NCBI GenBank assembly: GCA_016178595.1
Contig: JACOSY010000030.1
Coordinates: 1-34,715 of the forward strand
Origin: Ignavibacteria bacterium
GTDB lineage: Bacteria; Bacteroidota; Ignavibacteria; UBA10030; SZUA-254
Length of the DNA: 34,715 nucleotides
Direction: 5' to 3'
The position numbers and the translations under genes were made by a program. Below the pieces are notes generated by a model that was given only the letters and a program-made list of their open reading frames with translations, was not told where the DNA came from and did not search any database. Positions 1,748-34,289 of the stretch are shown piece after piece (positions within the stretch are counted from its first letter, which is position 1; every line of letters starts with the position of its first letter).

Positions 1748-1838
1748 GTTATTCGTCATTGGTTATCCGTTATCTGGATCAAGCAACAGATGACCTTTCT
1801 CACATCTCGTATCTCATATCCAATATCATATCTCCTAC
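1748..1838. repeat. AT-rich word-repeat segments in an intergenic gap
   Basis: Bases 1748-1774 consist of repeated ATTCGTCATTGG / TTATCCGTTATC-type words. Bases 1801-1838 consist of ATCTCGTATCTCATATC-type words. Such degenerate word strings are common between genes in this group of bacteria. The second block runs into the stop codon (1835-1837) of the adjacent membrane-protein gene. No coding potential is evident here. Confidence 0.5.
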
Positions 1839-2449
1839 TCCACCATTTTCTCTGCCCTCACCTCGAACAACCTGCTCACGTCCTTCTTTCGCACGCTCAC
1901 CAATATCCAGATGATGATCGGGATGAATCCGACGCCGATCGCATTATAAAAATCATACAGGAAACTGACGATGGAATTACGAAACGCCGAATCCTTGAAC
2001 GGCGAAAACGTATGCTGATCCGGAAGAAATGTGTACGACCACGTCATGACGACGACGGAAGCGAGGCTATCGATGACGATGAGAAACGACACTCCCATGA
2101 GAACCGCCTTTATTTTTCGCTTCAAGGCAATCGGCATGGCAAGCACAAGCGCCAGCAGCATCGGCATGTGTGAGCGGAGCGACTCCAGCTTGAAGTCGAA
2201 GAGCGAGTCCTGCATATCGGCTGCGTCGCGGTGGTAGACGGCGATCTCGTAGGCGGGATCGAGTGATGGGCCGAGCTTCGTGACGTTTTCAAGTCCGACG
2301 ATGTGCAGCTCTTCGTTCGCAATTGCCGTGACGATGCCGGTATACGGCGGGACGAGGTACGACCATCCCCACAGCGCAAACGCGTAGACAACAATTGCCG
2401 TTAGGATGAACCGGACAATTGTGTTAGCGGCGGATGGACGCTTTGGCAC
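1835..2449 (-). CDS. Exosortase-associated membrane protein (XrtH-associated type)
   Basis: This integral membrane protein of about 204 residues lies directly downstream of, and overlaps, the exosortase gene. An N-terminal transmembrane helix (around VRFILTAIVVYAFALWGW) is followed by an extracytoplasmic segment. Three more helices follow (MPMLLALVLAMPIAL, AVLMGVSFLIVIDSLASVVVM and a C-terminal one near GVGFIPIIIWILVSV). The frame is open back to ATG 2518, but that extension is Ser/Arg-rich and lies inside the exosortase transmembrane coding region. GTG at 2449 gives a 26-base overlap and is the more likely start. Small membrane proteins in this position accompany exosortase H in other genomes; their exact role is unknown. 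Identification rests on context and topology more than on motifs. Confidence 0.7.
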   Translation of the reverse strand: MPKRPSAANTIVRFILTAIVVYAFALWGWSYLVPPYTGIVTAIANEELHIVGLENVTKLGPSLDPAYEIAVYHRDAADMQDSLFDFKLESLRSHMPMLLALVLAMPIALKRKIKAVLMGVSFLIVIDSLASVVVMTWSYTFLPDQHTFSPFKDSAFRNSIVSFLYDFYNAIGVGFIPIIIWILVSVRKKDVSRLFEVRAEKMVE

Positions 2450-2996
2450 CGGCGAACTTTGCCGCCCAGAAGAGCCAGACCGCCAGCGTGAGAAGTATGA
2501 AGAGAGCCTGCCAGGCATAGATATGGAACATGTCGAACAGCGATGGAAAATACACGCCGATGTAAAACATCGTTACGACGCGAACGATGTTCATGAGAAA
2601 CAGCACGATGGCGCCGCCGATCACGCCAATGGTCTTGGATTTCCACGTTGCAGGATAGGCAAGGAGCGCCGCCCACAGCATCGCCGTTGGATAAAGGGAA
2701 TCGCAGCCGCGAACGATATTCACGCTGAAGCGGGACGACGTGATCGACGATCCGGCAACATCGCACTGCGTTCCGAGGGCAGACAAGACCTTCCCGCACG
2801 CAGACGCAATTTGGTGAAGGTGCGGTTCCACAAAATTTGTCTGCGCTGCATTGATCTGCAGCAGAATCGTGAACACGCCGAGGATAAGAGCGAAGAGGAA
2901 ACAGAACTTGAGAATCTCTCTATTCTCTCGAAGCGAAATCCGTAGTCGGCCTTTTGCATCAGAGGATGTGGTATGATCTTTTTGTTTGCTTGTCAT
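2424..2996 (-). CDS. xrtH: Exosortase/archaeosortase family transpeptidase, XrtH-like
   Basis: Exosortases are polytopic membrane cysteine proteases/transpeptidases that cut C-terminal 'CTERM' sorting signals of exported proteins. Counting from ATG 2996 the protein has 190 residues. The expected catalytic triad is visible: Cys98 in NIVRGCDSLYP, Arg139 in LMNIVRVVTMFYIGVY and His158 in FDMFHIYAWQALF. The hydrophobic helices between them fit the family. The spacing and the pattern around Arg and His resemble exosortase H. A TTG start at 3026 is possible but less likely. The downstream gene overlaps and encodes the usual XrtH-type partner. No CTERM substrate is visible in the window. The subfamily is inferred; the family is well supported. 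Confidence 0.85.
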   Translation of the reverse strand: MTSKQKDHTTSSDAKGRLRISLRENREILKFCFLFALILGVFTILLQINAAQTNFVEPHLHQIASACGKVLSALGTQCDVAGSSITSSRFSVNIVRGCDSLYPTAMLWAALLAYPATWKSKTIGVIGGAIVLFLMNIVRVVTMFYIGVYFPSLFDMFHIYAWQALFILLTLAVWLFWAAKFAGAKASIRR

Positions 2997-3026
2997 TGTA
3001 TTCACGAGGAACTGAGGCGATGTCAA

Positions 3027-22980: not shown

Positions 22981-24179
22981 GAATTCTCTTCTTGACATCT
23001 CGTCTTCCCTATCCTCCGTACCGCGGCGATAAGCTGAGGACATGGAATCTGATTAAGCAAATCTCGAAAAAACACGAAATAACGCTTCTCTCTTTCATTC
23101 AAGATAAGTCTGAACGCAAATGGATTGACGAATTAAAAGTCTATTGCAAAGAAATTCAAGTTGTTCACCTGCCATTGAGAAAATCTTTGATGAACTGTCT
23201 TATGGCAATTGCAAAAGCCACTCCTTTTCAAGTTGCCTATTTTCTTTCAGGGAAGATGAAATGGGAAATCGAAAAAACAATCAAGTGTATTCAACCGGAT
23301 GTCATTCATACGCACTTGATTCGAATGGCACCGTACGCCGCGGAGTATTCACACATTCCACAAGTGATCGATCAAACCGATTCGATTTCGCTGTACCTTA
23401 ACCGGTTTAAAACGTTCCAGCGAAATCCTCTTGGGCGATTTCTTATTGGCATCGAATATAAAAGAATGCTCGACTATGAAACAATTCTGTCGCGATTCAA
23501 TCGGGTACTTGTTTGTTCCGATCTCGACCGTCGCGCTATAATAGAAGTGACCCCGGAGGCTTTGGTTGAGATAATCGAGAATGGGGTCGACATAGCGACA
23601 TTGCCAACGGGTCGGCAGATCCGCCCGGAACCTTTTCGGATTATCTTTACCGGAAACATGTCGTATTTTCCTAATGCACATGGTGCAAGATTTTTTGTAA
23701 ACGAAATATTTCCGATAATTAAGAAACAACAACCTGCGACAACGCTGTATATTGTCGGTCAAAACCCACCAGCGAGTGTTCGTTCTCTGGCTGGCGAAGA
23801 TGTAATTGTAACGGGATTCGTGAAAGACATATACCTGGAATATCAAAAAAGTTCGGTTGCGATTGCGCCAATACGATTTGGCGCCGGAACACAATACAAG
23901 ATTCTTGAATCCCTTGCTCTCGGTATTCCAACGGTATCGACCTCAATTGGTGTGAACGGAATCGGCCTTCACGCAGGGAAAGAAATTCTTCTCGCCGATG
24001 ATCCCGAGCAATTTGCGGCTGCAGTGTTGCGATTGTTTAAAGATCCATCGCTTCGTGAAATGCTTTCTCGGAATTCCTCGCAATTGATTCGGGAACATTT
24101 TAATTGGGAGGGAATTGGAAAAAAACTTGATAATGTTTATCATTCAGTAAGTGCTCCAATTCAGGGTGCACGAGCATAA
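22977..24179 (+). CDS. Glycosyltransferase family 4, Stp1/PEP-CTERM-EPS-associated type
   Basis: This 400-residue protein has a GTG start overlapping the preceding stop (GTGA). The beginning ILFLTSRLPYPPYRGDKLRT, with the following HEITLLSF, matches the sugar transferases described as associated with PEP-CTERM/EpsH exosortase systems (Stp1 type). Donor-domain landmarks are IIFTGNMSYFPNAHGARFF, LYIVGQNPPASV, IVTGFVKDIYLEYQKSSV and FGAGTQYKILESLALGIPTV. The sequence is clearly AT-rich compared with rmlB and the phosphotransferase that flank the cassette. The Stp1 assignment suggests a link with the exosortase gene at 2424-2996, but this is only an association. Confidence 0.85.
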   Translation: MRILFLTSRLPYPPYRGDKLRTWNLIKQISKKHEITLLSFIQDKSERKWIDELKVYCKEIQVVHLPLRKSLMNCLMAIAKATPFQVAYFLSGKMKWEIEKTIKCIQPDVIHTHLIRMAPYAAEYSHIPQVIDQTDSISLYLNRFKTFQRNPLGRFLIGIEYKRMLDYETILSRFNRVLVCSDLDRRAIIEVTPEALVEIIENGVDIATLPTGRQIRPEPFRIIFTGNMSYFPNAHGARFFVNEIFPIIKKQQPATTLYIVGQNPPASVRSLAGEDVIVTGFVKDIYLEYQKSSVAIAPIRFGAGTQYKILESLALGIPTVSTSIGVNGIGLHAGKEILLADDPEQFAAAVLRLFKDPSLREMLSRNSSQLIREHFNWEGIGKKLDNVYHSVSAPIQGARA

Positions 24180-24195
24180 TTATCCACTGTGTCAC

Positions 24196-25587
24196 ATGTA
24201 CAAAGAAAAATCGTTATTGATTTTCCTCGATCTTCTCACCCTCAACCTCGCCTGGACCGGGTTTTACTGGTTGCGGGTGCGGAGCGGCTGGCTGTCGTTC
24301 GCGACGATGCCGGATTTCTGGATGCCGATGCTTGTCATCTGTGTCTACTGGCTCATCGTGTTCTTCCTGTTCGGACTCTACCGCTCGTGGTATGCACAGT
24401 CGCGCTTCGATGAGTTTGTCACAATCTCCAAGGCGACGATCTTCGGCGTGCTCGTCCTTTTCTTTGCAATCTTCATCGATGACGAGGGAACCGGTTCGCC
24501 GGTGCAATCACGGTTTTTCATTGTCGGATACTGGGGACTCGTCACGGGCTTCGTTGGGACCGGACGATTTCTTCAGCACACCTTTCAGCGCCGGCTGCTT
24601 GAAGCAGGCATAGGCCTCCATAACACGCTCATTGTCGGCTGGTCGTCGAAAGCAATGCAATTGTTCGACACTGTCCAACTCTACCCGGCGCTTGGCTACA
24701 ACATTGTAGGCTTTGTGTCGGTAGCGAAAGGATCGAGTGAAAAATCCTACAAGGGTGTTCCGATATTTCCATCTGTCGAAGAGCTTACAACGCTCATCGA
24801 CAGGCACGATGTGAAGGACGTTCTTATCGCGCTCGATTCGACGGAGCACGACCGCCTCTTGTCGATCATCGGATCGTGTAATTCGCACGAGGTGAGTCTG
24901 AAGATCATCCCCGACCTCTACGATATCATCAGTGGCCAGGCGCGGACGAACCAGATCTATGGCTTCCCGCTGATTGAGATCATGCCGGAGATTATGCAGC
25001 CGTGGGAACGTGCAGTCAAGCGCGCGATCGATATCAGCGTCGCGATGATCGTGCTGCTCGTGGGATTGCCGGTCTGGCTTGTCGTCGCATTAGCAATCCG
25101 CCTCAATTCACAAGGTCCGATCTTCTACATGCAGGAACGAGTCGGCAAGGATGAGGAGATATTCCATATCGTCAAGTTTCGCTCCATGTACCATAATGCG
25201 GAGCAGGGATCAGGACCGGTGTGGGCGAATAAAGAAGACCCGCGGGTAACGCGGATAGGCAAAATTCTTCGGAAACTTCGAATCGATGAGGTCCCGCAGC
25301 TCATCAACGTCCTCGATGGCGATATGAGCTTGGTTGGACCGCGACCAGAGCGGCCCTACTTTGTCGAACAGCTTGCAGAAGAGATTCCATTGTACAAACG
25401 CCGGCTGAAGGTTCGTCCCGGTATTACGGGTTGGGCGCAGGTGAAGCACAAGTACGACGAGAGCATCGAAGATGTTCGCAGGAAAGTCGAATACGATCTC
25501 TATTATATTGAGAACATGTCGCTCCGAATGGATTTCAAAATTCTACTGAACACCGTTGCAGTTGTGCTCTTGGGGAAAGGACATTAA
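24196..25587 (+). CDS. Polyprenyl-phosphate glycosyl-1-phosphate transferase (WbaP/EpsE-like)
   Basis: This 463-residue enzyme should start repeat-unit synthesis by transferring sugar-1-phosphate to undecaprenyl phosphate. Four N-terminal helices lie at about residues 5-125. A CoA-binding-like Rossmann domain follows at about 142-260 ([13 protein letters not shown]). The catalytic domain covers 273-463 with [34 protein letters not shown], the catalytic Asp364-Glu365 in [22 protein letters not shown] and [12 protein letters not shown] 24196 is preferred over GTG 24151, which lies inside the previous gene. The composition is more GC-rich again, marking the right edge of the variable cassette. 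Confidence 0.93.
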
Positions 25588-28062: not shown

Positions 28063-30069
28063 ATGCAACTCTCTGTCATTATCATAAACTACAATGTGCG
28101 GGCATTTCTCGAAAGCGCGCTCGTTGCAGTCCGTAAGGCGATGAGCGGCCTCGAAGGAGAAATCTTCGTCGTTGACAACAACTCCGACGATGGGAGTGTC
28201 GAGATGGTGCGGCATAAATTCCCCGATGTTCACCTCATTGTGAATGAGCGGAACCTTGGCTTTGCCGCTGCAAACAACATTGCACTCCGGCGTTGCACAG
28301 GCAAGTACATCCTGCTTCTCAACCCTGACACGCTCGTGCAGGAAGATACGTTCCGCGTCGTGGCGGATTTTATGGATAAACATCCGGAGGTCGGCCTCGC
28401 CGGATGTAAGATTCTCAATCCCGATGGGACGCTGCAGCTCCCGTGCCGGAGAAGCTTCCCGACCCCGTGGGTTGCCTTTACAAAAATTATCGGGCTGAGC
28501 GCACTCTTTCCCCGCTCATCTCTGTTTGGGAAATACAATCTCACATATTGTTCGCCGGATCAGTCGTACGAAGTCGATGCAGTGAGCGGCTCGTTCATGT
28601 TCTTGCGGCACGAAACATACCAGGCGGTCGGTGGACTTGACGAGCAGTTCTTCATGTACGGAGAGGACCTTGATTGGTGCTACCGCATCAAGAGCGCGGG
28701 GAGGAAAGTGTATTACGTTCACTCAACGCAGATCATTCATTATAAAGGACAAAGCGCACGGCGGAGTGATATTGACGAAATCAAACTCTTCTACCAAGCC
28801 ATGCGAGTTTTTGTGGAGAAGCACTTCCAATATGGTTTCGTCTTCGATGTTATCATCCGATTTGGGATTGCACTTCGCCAACTCGTTGCCTTTATCGCGA
28901 AGATCGCCAAACCGCTTCGTGCAACCGCGCTGGATTTTCTTCTCATCAATCTTTCCTGGATACTTGGTGAATGGATTTGGTTCGGCAAAATCTTTCGCTT
29001 CCCTGCTTATGCGTATCCAGCTTTAATAACTGTGCCGTGGCTCGTCCTGGCGAGTGTCATGTATTGGTCCGGCGTCTACTCGACGCGGAAGCTTTCCATT
29101 TCCCGCGCAGCGACATCTGTCATTATCGGCTACGTCGTCCTCTCGGCGCTGACGTTTTTCTTCAAGCAGTACGGCTTCAGCCGCATGGTGGTTCTCATCT
29201 CCGGTAGTGTCAATTTTGTGCTCTTGCCGGGATGGAGACTTGTCGCGCGCGCCGTCTTACGCTCGCCGGAGCACCGGCGCAAGAGTCTCTTTGGTCGTCG
29301 TACGATTATTGTCGGCACGAACATATCGGGACAGGAGGTCTTGCGGAAACTCCGTGCCCGGATCGACGATGGTTACGAAGTTGTCGGATTCATCGACAAT
29401 GATCGGAAGCGTGTCGGTGAGAAGATGGCGGGAGTTGAAATTCTCGGTTCGATTGACAATATTGGAAAGGTTATCGAAGAACAACGAGCGTCGGAAGTGA
29501 TCTTTTCAACCGATACGCTTTCGTATACCGACATCCTCTCGGTCATCAGCAGGAGCCGCAACCGATCGGTCAATTACCGGCTTGTGCCGAGCAGCCTTGA
29601 AGTCATTATCGGCAAAACACATATCGACGAGCTGGAAGATATGCCGCTCGTCGAGATCGAGTACAATATCAATCGTTTCACGAATCGCTTCGCGAAGCGT
29701 GTGGTTGATATTGCCGGCTCGCTCGTTCTGATGACGTTTGCGTATCCTATCATTGCACTCGAAAAACGGACCGGAAGTACGATTGGTTCATTGGGGCAAA
29801 AAATCTTGCTGGTGCCAAAAGTGTTGAAAGGCGAGACAAGCCTCGTCGGTCCGCCGATGTATTCGCATGATGCGACAAAGAACGGTTCCGTGGAGTCATC
29901 GCTCTATCTTGGCAAACAAGGATTAACCGGGCTTGTTCAGGTGAACTACCGTGACGATCTACAACCGGAAGAGATTGAAAAATATAACTTGTACTACGCG
30001 AAGAACCAGTCGCTTCTCTTGGATCTCGAGATTCTCATAAAATCTAGTATCGTCTTGATGAAACGCTGA
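28063..30069 (+). CDS. GT2 glycosyltransferase fused to a degenerate polyprenyl sugar-phosphotransferase-like module
   Basis: This is a 668-residue, two-part protein. Residues about 3-230 form a complete GT2 domain (SVIIINYNVRAFLESAL, LLLNPDTLVQED, AVSGSFMF, GLDEQFFMYGEDLDWCYR). About four transmembrane helices lie between 288 and 390. Residues about 411-530 form a Rossmann/CoA-binding-like domain (RTIIVGTNISGQEVL). Residues 543-668 match the two ends of a bacterial sugar transferase domain (KRVVDIAGSLVL; GETSLVGPPMY; GLTGLVQVNYR). About 50 residues normally between these ends, including KFRSM and the catalytic Asp-Glu, are missing. The PGT half therefore looks inactive as a transferase. It may be a membrane anchor or a regulatory or partner module. 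The reading frame is intact. Confidence 0.88.
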   Translation: MQLSVIIINYNVRAFLESALVAVRKAMSGLEGEIFVVDNNSDDGSVEMVRHKFPDVHLIVNERNLGFAAANNIALRRCTGKYILLLNPDTLVQEDTFRVVADFMDKHPEVGLAGCKILNPDGTLQLPCRRSFPTPWVAFTKIIGLSALFPRSSLFGKYNLTYCSPDQSYEVDAVSGSFMFLRHETYQAVGGLDEQFFMYGEDLDWCYRIKSAGRKVYYVHSTQIIHYKGQSARRSDIDEIKLFYQAMRVFVEKHFQYGFVFDVIIRFGIALRQLVAFIAKIAKPLRATALDFLLINLSWILGEWIWFGKIFRFPAYAYPALITVPWLVLASVMYWSGVYSTRKLSISRAATSVIIGYVVLSALTFFFKQYGFSRMVVLISGSVNFVLLPGWRLVARAVLRSPEHRRKSLFGRRTIIVGTNISGQEVLRKLRARIDDGYEVVGFIDNDRKRVGEKMAGVEILGSIDNIGKVIEEQRASEVIFSTDTLSYTDILSVISRSRNRSVNYRLVPSSLEVIIGKTHIDELEDMPLVEIEYNINRFTNRFAKRVVDIAGSLVLMTFAYPIIALEKRTGSTIGSLGQKILLVPKVLKGETSLVGPPMYSHDATKNGSVESSLYLGKQGLTGLVQVNYRDDLQPEEIEKYNLYYAKNQSLLLDLEILIKSSIVLMKR

Positions 30070-30075
30070 CCGGCA

Positions 30076-31026
30076 ATGGCGAAAACAATTCTGGAATTCG
30101 AAAAACCGATTATCGAGCTCGAGCAAAAGATCGAGGAACTGCGCAAGTATTCCGACTCGCTCGATGTCGAAGAAGAAATACACGATCTGGAGGAGAATGT
30201 CCGGCAACTTCAAAAGAGCATCTACACCGGACTAACGCGTTGGCAGAAAGTTCAGCTCGCTCGCCATCCCGACCGGCCATACACGCTTGACTACATCTCC
30301 ATGATGATGACAGACTTCATGGAGCTGCATGGTGACCGCAGCTTCGGCGACGACAAAGCTATCGTCGGCGGTTTCGCCCGGTTGGATGGAGTGCCCGTGA
30401 TGGTGATTGGTCACCAGAAGGGCCGTGACACGAAGTCGAACGTCTTTCGCAATTTCGGCATGCCGAACCCGGAAGGTTATCGGAAAGCCTTGCGGTTGAT
30501 GAAGCTGGCGACGAAGTTCACCCGGCCCATCATTACAATGCTCGATACGCCCGGCGCCTATCCCGGACTTGAGGCTGAAGAACGCGGCCAGGCCGAGGCA
30601 ATTGCACGGAACCTCTTTGAGATGTCTCACCTGCCCGTCCCGATCATCGTCGTAATCGTCGGTGAAGGTGCATCCGGCGGTGCATTAGGTATCGGCATTG
30701 GCGATCGCATACTCATGATGGAAAATACCTGGTATTCGGTGATCTCGCCGGAATCATGCTCGAGTATACTCTGGCGCAGTTGGGATTTCAAAGAACAGGC
30801 TGCAGAAGCTCTGAAGCTCACTGCGCCCGATCTCCTTGCACAGGGCATTGTCGACCGCATTGTGCCGGAGCCGTTGGGCGGCGCCCATCGTAACCCGGAG
30901 GAAGCAGCGAAACTGCTCAAAAGCATTTTGATCGATGAGCTGAAGAAACTTACAAAGGTCAAGCCCGATAAGCTCGTCGAGAAACGGATCGAGAAGTTCG
31001 GCAAGATGGGAGAGTGGGAAGAATAA
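30076..31026 (+). CDS. accA: Acetyl-CoA carboxylase carboxyltransferase subunit alpha
   Basis: This 316-residue cytoplasmic subunit works with AccD to transfer CO2 from biotin carboxyl carrier protein to acetyl-CoA, giving malonyl-CoA for fatty-acid synthesis. The N-terminus has the usual coiled-coil helix ([19 protein letters not shown]). The crotonase-like core shows [52 protein letters not shown] and [15 protein letters not shown]. The length is normal. It starts seven bases after the fusion gene stop, so it may be transcribed with the polysaccharide locus, although its role is housekeeping. Confidence 0.97.
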
Positions 31027-31105: not shown

Positions 31106-31546
31106 ATGAGTATTTCTGCTGAGACAAAAATTCGTGTTCGCTACGCCGATACCGATCAGATGAAAATGGTTTACTACGGAAAGTTCTTCGAGTACTTCGA
31201 GCAGGGCCGGTCGGATCTTCTCCGGGATATCGGTATGCCGTACCCGGAGATCGAGCGAATGGGGTATTATCTTCCGGTGATTGAGGCGCATGCACGTTAC
31301 CTGAAAGCAGCCCGGTACGACGATCTCCTTATTGTCAAGACGATCGTGAACGACGCGCCGCAAGCACGCATCCGGATCGAGTACAAAGTCCATCATGATG
31401 AAACCAACGAGCTTCTGGCCGAAGGACACACCGTTCATAGCTTTGTAAACGCAGCGACCGGAAGGCCGACGCGCGCGCCGGAACAATTCCTCGAGACGCT
31501 CTCTGAGGCGGTGTCGCGAGCCGCCGCCGCGAAATCCCAGCCATAA
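31106..31546 (+). CDS. Acyl-CoA thioesterase, YbgC/4HBT hot-dog family
   Basis: This 146-residue single hot-dog domain has the family start IRVRYADTDQMKMVYYGKFF followed by EYFEQGRSDLLRDIG. The active-site Asp of 4HBT-type thioesterases is present in TDQM. The His of the E. coli YbgC pattern (VYH) is replaced by Tyr (VYY), as in many homologues from this phylum. It hydrolyses acyl-CoA thioesters; the true substrate is unknown. It follows accA after a repeat-containing 79-base gap. Confidence 0.9.
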   Translation: MSISAETKIRVRYADTDQMKMVYYGKFFEYFEQGRSDLLRDIGMPYPEIERMGYYLPVIEAHARYLKAARYDDLLIVKTIVNDAPQARIRIEYKVHHDETNELLAEGHTVHSFVNAATGRPTRAPEQFLETLSEAVSRAAAAKSQP

Positions 31547-31551
31547 TCGTT

Positions 31552-31716
31552 ATGCTGTCGAGAGAACTCCTGAAGATCCTTCGTTGTCCCGTTTGTCGTC
31601 GTGAGCTTGCTTCCGACGACGAGAAGAAAATCGTAACCTGCGTGTACTGCAAGAAAACGTATTCAGTCCGAGAGAACATTCCCATAATGATCGATGAGCA
31701 ATCACGACCAGCATAA
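31552..31716 (+). CDS. Trm112-like small zinc-binding protein
   Basis: This is a 54-residue protein, easily missed because of its size. It begins MLSRELLKILRCPVCRRELA. Four cysteines at 12, 15, 30 and 33 form two CxxC pairs (CPVC and CVYC) suited to one zinc ion. KTYSVRENIPIMI near the end is the conserved Trm112/YcaR closing motif (Y.V..GIP.ML). Bacterial Trm112-like proteins are often near cell-envelope or lipid genes, and some may activate methyltransferases. It starts five bases after the thioesterase stop and overlaps nadC by 23 bases in another frame. Confidence 0.85.
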   Translation: MLSRELLKILRCPVCRRELASDDEKKIVTCVYCKKTYSVRENIPIMIDEQSRPA

Positions 31717-32605
31717 TGCGTTGCACGATATTGCACACGATAGCCGCGTCAGCCGGATTGTCGTGGAGGCGCTCATGGAAGATCTTGGGATGGGAGATGT
31801 TACGACGGACGCTGCCATCCCCCGCGATCTCACCGGTTATGCAGGGCTGCTTGCGAAAGAATCCGGCATCATTGCGGGGCTTGATGTCGCCGCACTGGTA
31901 TTCTCTGCCGTCGATGTTGACGTTCGGATGACGCACTTGCTGCAGGATGGCGCAATGGTCGACGCGCAGACAACGATAGCCCGCCTTGACGGTCCCGTTG
32001 CCAGTATTCTGAAAGCCGAAAGGACTGCCCTCAATATCCTGCAACGCATGAGCGGTATTGCCACACTTACGCGGATGTTTGTCGATGCTATCGCGGGAAC
32101 TCGTGCAACGATCACCGACACGCGAAAGACGGCTCCCGGTCTTCGTCTTTTGGATAAGCGCGCCGTTCAGATCGGCGGGGGAGTCAATCATCGCTTCGGG
32201 CTGGACGACATGGTGCTCATCAAGGATAACCACATTGCTGCGGCCGGCGGAATCACAGCGGCAGTCGAGCGTTGTCGTGCATTCATGGCCGAAAGAAACT
32301 ACCATCTCAAGATCGAAGTCGAGACCAAGACATTCGAAGAGGTGAAAGAGGCCCTTGCAGTGAAAGGAATTCACCGCATCATGCTCGACAATTTCCCTCT
32401 CGACATGATGCGCGACGCCGTTCAACTCATCAACCATGCTGTCGAGGTCGAAGCCTCCGGCAATGTTTCGCTTGCAACGGTTCGTGCAACCGCCGAAACG
32501 GGCGTCGACTTCATCTCCGTCGGAGCGCTGACCCATTCGCCCAAGGCGCTCGACATCTCGTTGAATGTGAAGGCGACGAAGAGCAGCGGTAGGGGGAAAT
32601 CCTAA
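31694..32605 (+). CDS. nadC: Quinolinate phosphoribosyltransferase (nicotinate-nucleotide pyrophosphorylase, carboxylating)
   Basis: This 303-residue enzyme makes nicotinate mononucleotide from quinolinate and PRPP in NAD synthesis. Landmarks are LMEDLGMGDVTTDAAIP, AERTALNILQRMSGIAT, TDTRKTAPGLRLLDK with AVQIGGGVNHRFGLDD, MVLIKDNHI, KIEVETKTFEEV and MLDNFP. VEASGNVSLATVR and DFISVGALTHSPKALDIS close the TIM-barrel-like fold. ATG 31694 lies inside the Trm112-like gene. The last two codons and the stop coincide with the beginning of an inverted-repeat element. Confidence 0.96.
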   Translation: MSNHDQHNALHDIAHDSRVSRIVVEALMEDLGMGDVTTDAAIPRDLTGYAGLLAKESGIIAGLDVAALVFSAVDVDVRMTHLLQDGAMVDAQTTIARLDGPVASILKAERTALNILQRMSGIATLTRMFVDAIAGTRATITDTRKTAPGLRLLDKRAVQIGGGVNHRFGLDDMVLIKDNHIAAAGGITAAVERCRAFMAERNYHLKIEVETKTFEEVKEALAVKGIHRIMLDNFPLDMMRDAVQLINHAVEVEASGNVSLATVRATAETGVDFISVGALTHSPKALDISLNVKATKSSGRGKS

Positions 32606-32771: not shown

Positions 32772-34289
32772 ATGTTCGATAAGATAAAGCGCCTCGGCAG
32801 CGAAACGGCGATCTACGGCGCCAGCACCATCCTCAGTCGTTTCCTCAACTTCCTTCTTGTCCCGTTCTACACTAACGTCCTTGTGCCGGGTGAATTCGGC
32901 ATCGTCAGCTACATCTACTCCATGATTGCATTCGTGAACGTGATCTATTCCTACGGGATGGAGTCGGCGTATTTCAAGTATGCATCGACGATGGAATTAG
33001 GGACGGAGAAGCAAAACTTCAGCACGCCATTTCTCTCACTCTTTATGACGTCGGTGCTCTTCTCGTTTGCAATCGTCGCTGCCGCATCGCCGATTGTGGG
33101 CGCACTGAAGATCCCGCCGGAGTACAAGAGCATCGTTCTCTATGCAGCAGGAATCCTTGCCCTTGATGCGATCGCCATTATTCCGTTTGCATCCTTGAGG
33201 ATGGAACATCGCGCGAAGCTCTTCGCAACGGTGAAGTTTCTCAACATTCTCACCAATGTCGTCATGAATGTTCTCTTGCTCGCTGTGTTTCATAAAGGTG
33301 TGACGGGAATCTTCATCAGCGGATTCGTTGCTTCGGCTCTTACGGTAGTTCTGCTGCTGCCGACGATCCTACGCCACCTTATCGTTGACATGAAGAACGA
33401 TTTACTTGGCGCACTCGTGCGGTTCGGGTTGCCGTCGATTCCGGCAGGACTGGCGGCGATGGCAGTGCAGGTGATCGACCGGCCGATTCTCCGCAGTTTG
33501 ACCGACGATGCCACCGTCGGCATCTACCAGGCCAATTACCGTCTCGGGATCTTCATGATGCTGATCGTGCAGATGTACGACTATGCATGGCGGCCGTTTT
33601 ATTTTTCGATGGCAAAGGAGGAAAACGCCAAAGAAGTCTTTGCCCGTGTGCTGACATATATCGTGCTGTTGATGTCGGTCGTGTTTCTCGTTCTGACGTT
33701 TTTCATCGGCGACATCGTGAAGATCAGCATCTTCGGCAGGCATCTCATCCATCAAAATTATTGGGGCGGGTTGAATATTGTTCCGATCGTTCTCCTCGGC
33801 TATCTGTTCCTCGGCATGTATACAAACATCTCAGCCGGTTTGTACATTGAGAAGAAAACGAACTATCTACCGATCATTACGCTCATTGCGGCTGCAGTCA
33901 ACATCGCTGCCAACTACACGCTCATCCCGTCGATGGGAATGCTCGGCGCGGCATGGGCGACGTTCTGGGCGTATCTCGCAATGGCAATTGCCGGTTACTT
34001 CTTTGCGCAGCGTGTGTATCCGGTGAGATACGAGTGGGGAAGGATGGCGAAGCTTCTGATAGCGTTAGGTGTTTCAGTGGGAGTCTCTATGATTTTTCCG
34101 TTTGATGAGCTTTCTCAAGGAATGGAAGTCGCTCTAAAGGTTGGATTGCTTGGAGTGTTTGCATTAATGCTGTTTGCGATGAGGTTCTTCAGGGGAGGGG
34201 AGACGGTGTACATGAAGCGAATGTTTCTGCGACTGAGAGGGCTTGCAGATACAACCATCGTGAATGAGCAAACACCATCGTCACCCTGA
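32772..34289 (+). CDS. Second polysaccharide flippase/lipopolysaccharide biosynthesis protein
   Basis: This 505-residue polytopic protein of the MATE/MVF superfamily has about 14 helices. The N-terminus (GSETAIYGASTILSRFLNFL, VPFYTNVLVPGEFGIV) is the common Wzx/RfbX-like start. ATWATFWAYLAMA-type helices lie toward the end. It may move another lipid-linked glycan or peptidoglycan-type precursor, and its substrate is unknown. It is only remotely similar to the flippase at 18039. No strong ribosome site is visible before ATG 32772. Its stop codon is part of the palindrome at 34280-34307. Confidence 0.9.
   Translation: MFDKIKRLGSETAIYGASTILSRFLNFLLVPFYTNVLVPGEFGIVSYIYSMIAFVNVIYSYGMESAYFKYASTMELGTEKQNFSTPFLSLFMTSVLFSFAIVAAASPIVGALKIPPEYKSIVLYAAGILALDAIAIIPFASLRMEHRAKLFATVKFLNILTNVVMNVLLLAVFHKGVTGIFISGFVASALTVVLLLPTILRHLIVDMKNDLLGALVRFGLPSIPAGLAAMAVQVIDRPILRSLTDDATVGIYQANYRLGIFMMLIVQMYDYAWRPFYFSMAKEENAKEVFARVLTYIVLLMSVVFLVLTFFIGDIVKISIFGRHLIHQNYWGGLNIVPIVLLGYLFLGMYTNISAGLYIEKKTNYLPIITLIAAAVNIAANYTLIPSMGMLGAAWATFWAYLAMAIAGYFFAQRVYPVRYEWGRMAKLLIALGVSVGVSMIFPFDELSQGMEVALKVGLLGVFALMLFAMRFFRGGETVYMKRMFLRLRGLADTTIVNEQTPSSP

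What the first reader, a model, noticed from the sequence alone, without database searches (positions are those of the whole stretch)
28063..30069. GT2 glycosyltransferase fused to a sugar-phosphotransferase that has lost its catalytic segment
The protein joins an apparently intact GT2 domain to four membrane helices, a Rossmann-like domain and a shortened bacterial sugar transferase domain. The ends of that last domain are recognisable (KRVVDI at about 545, GETSLVGPPMY at about 590, GLTGLVQV at about 620). The segment that should hold KFRSM and the catalytic Asp-Glu is missing, about 50 residues shorter than in the active paralogue at 24196. An intact frame suggests the module was kept for another job, such as anchoring the GT2 at the membrane or binding the active phosphotransferase or its lipid product.
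Basis: partly seen in the sequence, partly recalled or inferred. Interest (0 to 1): 0.65.

Follow-up and report, generated by a model that had tools for sequence, protein, structure and literature searches.

The report
Sugar enzyme carrying a dead twin
A bacterial sugar-adding enzyme is permanently joined to a broken copy of the enzyme that normally starts the sugar chain; the broken part lost its active site long ago, apparently once, has been kept under selection in whole groups of bacteria, and has been dismantled piece by piece in others.

Summary
ORF 28063-30069 (668 aa) joins an intact GT2 domain to a four-helix bundle, a PF13727 Rossmann domain and a shortened monotopic phosphoglycosyl transferase (PGT) domain. 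It is neither local decay nor an assembly artefact: 58 of 59 relatives from its order carry the family (50 near full length), and it reaches other Bacteroidota, Balneolota, Calditrichota and KSB1. All 98 aligned members lack the KFRSM segment and the catalytic Asp-Glu; all 55 neighbouring separate PGTs keep both. The dead half forms one clade apart from the active PGTs sampled, so it was probably inactivated once, early. Where kept it is under purifying selection. Elsewhere it was lost at least four times, down to GT2 plus a compact Rossmann remnant. Best reading: the GT2 is the working enzyme, adding an early sugar to a lipid-linked acceptor; the pseudo-PGT is a membrane docking and dimerisation scaffold. 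Scaffold role, partner and substrate are inferred. New variant of a known kind.

The parts
28063..30069 (+). GT2-pseudoPGT fusion, 668 aa
28063..28827 (+). GT2 (GT-A) domain, residues 1-255, motifs NPD (87-89), EDxD (201-204), HYKGxS (226-231) kept
   Evidence: Pfam; invariant columns; NPD in 134/134, EDxD and HYKGxS in 130/134 members; fold matches to GT-A enzymes
28834..29256 (+). four-helix membrane bundle, residues 258-398
   Evidence: predicted helices; profile alignment to WbaP 8t53 from residue 283 on
29284..29652 (+). Rossmann-like domain (PF13727 CoA_binding_3), residues 408-530
   Evidence: fold match to 3nkl_B and Rex proteins
29611..29661 (+). beta-hairpin region, residues 517-533, aligned with the domain-swap hairpin of WbaP (Asn251-Gln268)
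   Evidence: alignment with a chain offset of 52 inferred here; PMC10942596; low pLDDT in both monomer models
29677..29769 (+). reentrant membrane helix of the pseudo-PGT, residues 539-569, broken at conserved Pro562
   Evidence: secondary structure H539-559/H561-569; K545, D549, P562 conserved
29770..29796 (+). junction of the deletion: 55 residues fewer than active PGTs, 68 fewer than WbaP, incl. KFRSM and the mobile loop
   Evidence: PMC10942596 for the mobile loop 337-369
29797..29802 (+). position of the catalytic Asp-Glu, here Gln579-Lys580
29818..30060 (+). retained C-terminal part of Bac_transf (profile 96-178)
   Evidence: PglC 8g1n_A Z 11.0, rmsd 3.0, 127 residues over model 252-383 (= 537-668)
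24151..25587 (+). active large PGT in the same cluster (ATG at 24196 possible)
   Evidence: full Bac_transf 1-178; TIGR03025 447 bits
25600..27297 (+). Wzi-like capsule assembly protein
   Evidence: PF14052
27337..28056 (+). DPM1-like GT2 (polyprenyl-phosphate sugar synthase-like), 6 bases upstream of the fusion
   Evidence: conserved neighbour
30076..31026 (+). accA, acetyl-CoA carboxylase carboxyltransferase alpha, 6 bases downstream
   Evidence: NF004344 above cut-off; conserved neighbour
31106..31546 (+). 4HBT thioesterase, conserved neighbour
31694..32605 (+). nadC-like gene, conserved neighbour
   Evidence: synteny; name from the encoded sequence, not tested
32772..34289 (+). polysaccharide flippase-like gene, conserved neighbour

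Best explanation
The protein belongs to an old family, found mostly as one copy per genome, in which a working GT2 glycosyltransferase is fused to a large PGT (Lg-PGT, WbaP-like) that lost its active site, probably once, early in the lineage of Bacteroidota, Ignavibacteria, Calditrichota and KSB1. The GT2 half is the enzyme: it most likely adds an early sugar to a polyprenyl-linked acceptor at the inner membrane, in a pathway started by the separate active PGT of the same cluster. The dead half works as a scaffold: membrane bundle and reentrant helix hold the GT2 at the lipid-water interface, and the Rossmann domain with its hairpin gives dimerisation and possibly nucleotide sensing as in WbaP. 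Shown by computation: the architecture, the loss of catalytic residues, a single clade among the sequences sampled, purifying selection, synteny with an active PGT, and repeated later loss of the dead half. Inferred: that GT2 is active, its acceptor and donor, dimerisation, and the scaffold role.
For: GT2 motifs conserved (NPD 134/134). KFRSM and Asp-Glu absent in 98/98, present in 55/55 neighbouring PGTs. The family profile aligns end to end with WbaP 8t53 (E 7.5e-33) with one 68-residue gap; AlphaFold models keep the PglC fold minus that block. Pseudo-PGT sequences form one clade apart from active PGTs (SH-aLRT 99). Structural residues stay (K545, D549, P562, G590, S593, G596, G620, Y645, N648, D654). 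dN/dS medians: GT2 0.045, Rossmann 0.049, hairpin 0.018, PGT C-term 0.10, reentrant helix 0.23. Cluster active PGT - DPM1-like - fusion - accA conserved in Ignavibacteria. All 11 PGT-less genomes in a 118-genome sample also lack the family. An independent fusion of a GT2 to an intact PGT exists (L194), so a bifunctional ancestor is plausible. Lg-PGT dimerisation through the hairpin and UMP regulation of WbaP: PMC10942596.
Against: The dead half has been lost in several lineages while GT2 persists, so it is not generally required. The reentrant helix is the least constrained part. Short forms end at the start of the hairpin, so hairpin-swap dimerisation cannot be universal. In KSB1/Calditrichota and Bacteroidia no active PGT was found in the flanks held. 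Co-occurrence of PGT and family rests mostly on one lineage (f22) that lacks both, hence weak. No complex was modelled and no activity measured.
Confidence: 0.55

Rival explanations
1. Heterodimer or regulator: the pseudo-PGT pairs through its Rossmann domain and hairpin with the active PGT of the same cluster, recruiting GT2 to the fresh lipid-PP-sugar or tuning the PGT.
For: Active PGT in the same cluster in nearly all Ignavibacteria loci with enough flank; the hairpin region, which carries the WbaP dimer contact, is the most constrained part of the C-terminal half (median dN/dS 0.018).
Against: Synteny with the PGT is not kept in Bacteroidia, KSB1 and Calditrichota; the same constraint would follow from homodimers; no complex was modelled.
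Confidence: 0.2
2. Passive leftover: after the PGT activity became redundant, the module stayed only as a generic tether and is slowly being lost, without a specific partner.
For: Repeated erosion: no-PGT forms (f17, f37) and short forms (f21, f24, f26, f28) nested among full forms; an AU test rejects a single short clade, p 5e-14.
Against: Retention in every full-length member of an order, dN/dS about 0.1 and invariant residues argue for selection where it is kept.
Confidence: 0.15
3. O-glycan core enzyme: with the DPM1-like neighbour it makes the conserved mannose-rhamnose core of Bacteroidota protein O-glycosylation, whose genes are unknown.
For: Phylum-wide spread, mostly single copy, DPM1-like neighbour; core genes unidentified (PMC12871550); weak similarity to rhamnosyltransferases (TIGR01556, 57 bits, below cut-off).
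Against: Many f22 genomes lack the family; in the window the gene sits in a Wzx/Wzy-type polysaccharide cluster; the DPM1-like protein matches no mannose-specific model above cut-off.
Confidence: 0.07
4. Hidden activity: the shortened domain still transfers or binds sugar-phosphate with other residues.
For: Fold and lipid-facing helix retained.
Against: The Asp-Glu positions vary freely (K, N, R, Q / F, R, K) and the KFRSM block is gone in 98/98.
Confidence: 0.03

Closest known systems
Large monotopic PGTs (Lg-PGT: S. enterica WbaP, PDB 8t53; TIGR03025; PF13727+PF02397)
   Same: Four-helix bundle, PF13727 Rossmann domain, hairpin, reentrant helix and C-terminal PGT part align end to end
   Different: 68-residue active-site block deleted, Asp-Glu and PRP Arg lost, GT2 domain added at the N-terminus
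Small PGT PglC (PDB 8e37, 8g1n)
   Same: C-terminal domain superposes over 127 residues, Z 11.0, rmsd 3.0
   Different: Lacks the mobile loop, KFRSM and catalytic dyad
Bifunctional PGTs (Bi-PGTs, as named in PMC10942596)
   Same: PGT module fused to another enzyme; L194 is a GT2 with an intact Lg-PGT
   Different: Here the PGT part lacks its catalytic residues, so the fusion is not bifunctional in that sense
GT2 glycosyltransferases of the WbbL / rhamnosyltransferase type
   Same: GT-A fold, NPD and EDxD motifs
   Different: No subfamily model reaches its cut-off; donor and acceptor unknown

Membership tests
GT2 glycosyltransferase | Pfam GT2 match above gathering score | tested here: met
   PF00535 83.3 bits, cut-off 23.3
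GT2 glycosyltransferase | metal-binding and catalytic acidic motifs | tested here: met
   D89, D193, E201, D202, D204 invariant in 70 rows; NPD 134/134
GT2 glycosyltransferase | sugar transfer activity | not testable with these tools
   needs an assay
Large monotopic PGT (Lg-PGT) | four-helix bundle plus PF13727 domain before the PGT core | tested here: met
   PF13727 72.1 bits; alignment to WbaP; model
Large monotopic PGT (Lg-PGT) | complete Bac_transf core | tested here: not met
   profile positions 96-178 of 179 only
Large monotopic PGT (Lg-PGT) | catalytic Asp-Glu dyad | tested here: not met
   Gln579-Lys580; absent in 98/98 members
Large monotopic PGT (Lg-PGT) | reentrant membrane helix with break at Pro | tested here: met
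   H539-559/H561-569, P562 at least 90% conserved; membrane insertion itself not tested
Large monotopic PGT (Lg-PGT) | dimer through the hairpin of the PF13727 domain | tested here: inconclusive
   hairpin aligned and constrained; no complex modelled
TIGR03025 EPS_sugtrans | score above curated cut-off | tested here: not met
   177.8 bits, cut-off 295.55
Bifunctional PGT (Bi-PGT) | PGT core with catalytic residues plus a second enzyme domain | tested here: not met
   PGT core lacks catalytic residues

The most novel reading that the evidence does not exclude
A phylum-wide pseudoenzyme: a catalytically dead PGT that, as the membrane scaffold and dimer partner of the active PGT, hands the first lipid-PP-sugar directly to the GT2 fused to it, so that the first two steps of glycan assembly run in one membrane complex.
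Probability: 0.2. Interest if true: 0.75.

Novelty: new variant of a known kind. Interest (0 to 1): 0.5.

Why it matters
PGTs start many bacterial surface glycans. No pseudo-PGT turned up in the papers searched, though that library lacks most subscription journals. This family supplies one that is old, conserved and in a cluster with an active relative, plus a natural deletion series (full, no PGT, GT2 with compact Rossmann remnant). That makes the unresolved role of the PF13727 domain and of membrane scaffolding in glycan assembly directly testable by swaps between long and short homologues.

Tried and rejected
Assembly artefact or single-strain decay: rejected. Missing half encoded elsewhere in the genome: rejected. 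Recent duplication of the paralogue at 24151: rejected, the pseudo-PGTs form their own clade (a first run had no PGT rows because of a bad pattern, and one search failed). In-frame fusion with accA in L108 (seen): rejected, an ambiguous stretch joins the two. Very long ORFs in L167 and L168 are runs of N. Foldseek/VIA matches of the whole model are filled by GT-A enzymes, so the C-terminal half was modelled alone. WbaP is matched with a high rmsd (16 A), so domain orientation differs or is poorly predicted; the claim rests on the sequence alignment and on the PglC match. GT2-only proteins of f22 fall with the outgroup and are not counted as losses. The GT2 tree is a quick one with many open forks: starred branches force 4 changes for the short label, 2 for no-PGT and 5 for full; parsimony gives 7-8. 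A survey centred on another phylum failed. Literature searches for a pseudo-PGT found nothing.

Full report
Check of the observation. ORF 28063-30069 encodes 668 aa. Pfam finds GT2 at 4-123 (PF00535), CoA_binding_3 at 334-509 (PF13727) and Bac_transf only from profile position 96 to 178 at 586-666; the paralogue at 24151 matches Bac_transf 1-178. The genome has two complete Bac_transf domains and this partial one. The gene lies 6 bases behind a DPM1-like GT2 and 6 bases before accA.

What exactly is missing. A profile of 70 family members aligns with WbaP (PDB 8t53) from the membrane bundle to the C-terminus, E 7.5e-33, with one gap of 68 WbaP residues, from just after the reentrant helix to just before SLDELPQL. 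The gap takes KFRSM and the mobile loop (WbaP 337-369, PMC10942596). The following helix is present; Asp-Glu is Gln579-Lys580 here. Over 98 aligned members the span from K545 to residue 588 is 34-70 residues (44 in the window protein), KFRSM occurs in none and the Asp-Glu pair in none; the Arg of PRP is lost in 97. All 55 neighbouring PGTs have KFRSM, Asp-Glu-x-Pro and GPRP, and a K-to-G span of 100 against 45 here.

Structure. AlphaFold2 on the family alignment gives mean pLDDT 83.6 and 83.9 for residues 286-668 alone. Helices 539-559 and 561-569 break at Pro562, as in a reentrant membrane helix. The C-terminal domain superposes on PglC (8g1n_A) over 127 residues, Z 11.0, rmsd 3.0. WbaP is the top Foldseek hit of both models. 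The hairpin region around 512-531 has low confidence in the monomer models; the corresponding hairpin of WbaP (Asn251-Gln268) was misplaced in its monomer model and turned out to be the domain-swap dimer contact (PMC10942596). The position match rests on a chain offset of 52, inferred from the N...Q residues.

Distribution and age. Of 59 relatives searched, 58 carry the family: 50 as one near full-length match, 8 in pieces or partial; one (G012, 79% complete) has only a remote GT2 match. A genome scan brought members from Ignavibacteriota, Bacteroidota, Calditrichota, KSB1 and Balneolota. In a sample of the phylum 146 of 198 genomes have a match at E 1e-70, though this count includes genomes whose only match is a GT2 of the outgroup type. 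A tree of the Rossmann-plus-PGT part puts 22 pseudo-PGTs in one clade apart from 26 active PGTs (SH-aLRT 99). The inactivation is therefore old and, in this sample, single.

Neighbourhood. In Ignavibacteria the order is active PGT, (Wzi-like), DPM1-like, fusion, accA, thioesterase, nadC, flippase, with some members missing; in Balneolales the fusion precedes PGT, DPM1-like and accA; in KSB1 and Calditrichota the accA side is kept; in Bacteroidia the gene stands among other genes.

Later dismantling. Some lineages have lost more. In f17 the PGT part is no longer recognised (L153-L156) though PGT, DPM1-like and accA still flank it. In f21, f24, f26 and f28 the protein is about 390-430 aa: GT2 followed by a compact domain whose C-terminal part matches the Rossmann profile (L152 E 7e-9, L151 2e-8, L164-L166 about 5e-6; weaker or visible only by eye in others). 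L146 and L147 are followed by accA; L164-L166 sit in the same place as the full-length gene of congeners such as L172. On the GT2 tree the short and no-PGT forms lie among full-length ones; well-supported branches force at least 4 changes for the short form and 2 for no-PGT. Holding the short forms together is rejected (AU p 5e-14).

Selection. For pairs of close relatives, median dN/dS is 0.045 for GT2, 0.09 for the bundle, 0.05 for the Rossmann domain, 0.018 for the hairpin region, 0.23 for the reentrant helix and 0.10 for the PGT C-terminal part; dS is near saturation in several pairs, so these are rough. D549, G596, G620, Y645 and D654 are invariant in 70 rows. The module is constrained where kept, least in the reentrant helix.

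Mechanism. GT2 motifs are intact, so the GT2 is the likely catalyst. An independent fusion of a GT2 to an intact Lg-PGT exists (L194), which makes a bifunctional ancestor plausible: PGT makes lipid-PP-sugar, GT2 adds the next. With a separate active PGT in the same cluster, the fused PGT could lose its active site while its membrane and dimer contacts stayed useful. Shown: architecture, loss, one clade in this sample, selection, synteny, later losses. Inferred: GT2 activity, acceptor and donor, dimerisation, scaffold function.

Comparison. It works like no single described enzyme known to me: part GT2, part dead Lg-PGT. It fails the Lg-PGT membership test on the complete core and on the Asp-Glu dyad, and the TIGR03025 cut-off. 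Novelty: new variant of a known kind. The similarity-network study of PGT fusions by O'Toole et al. 2021 could not be read here; it is known only through PMC10942596, so an earlier mention of such fusions is not excluded.

Noticed in passing
L192:2623-5106 (-), L195:1194-3695 (+): At the place of the active PGT in two relatives, a WecA/MraY-like polytopic PGT domain (PF00953 in L192; L195 by sequence likeness) is fused in frame to the large monotopic PGT, 828 and 834 aa: two kinds of initiating transferase in one chain.
   Followed up: partly
L194:2075-4444 (-): A different GT2 fused to an intact Lg-PGT (790 aa) in a genome of the same class.
   Followed up: partly
window 1835-3026 (-): Exosortase H (TIGR04177, above cut-off) with an XrtH-associated-like membrane protein just below its cut-off, upstream of the polysaccharide cluster.
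   Followed up: no
L162:3857-6067 (+), L163:3959-6394 (-): Family members with an insert of about 30 residues inside the GT2 domain near residue 186.
   Followed up: no
L153:3995-5827 (+), L156:3980-5839 (+): The C-terminal 100 residues show a possible faint echo of the PGT end (LFYNRFH...LD) though no profile matches.
   Followed up: no
window 30076-31026: accA is the most persistent neighbour of the fusion across Ignavibacteria, KSB1 and Calditrichota, setting a fatty-acid gene beside envelope glycan genes for no evident reason.
   Followed up: no
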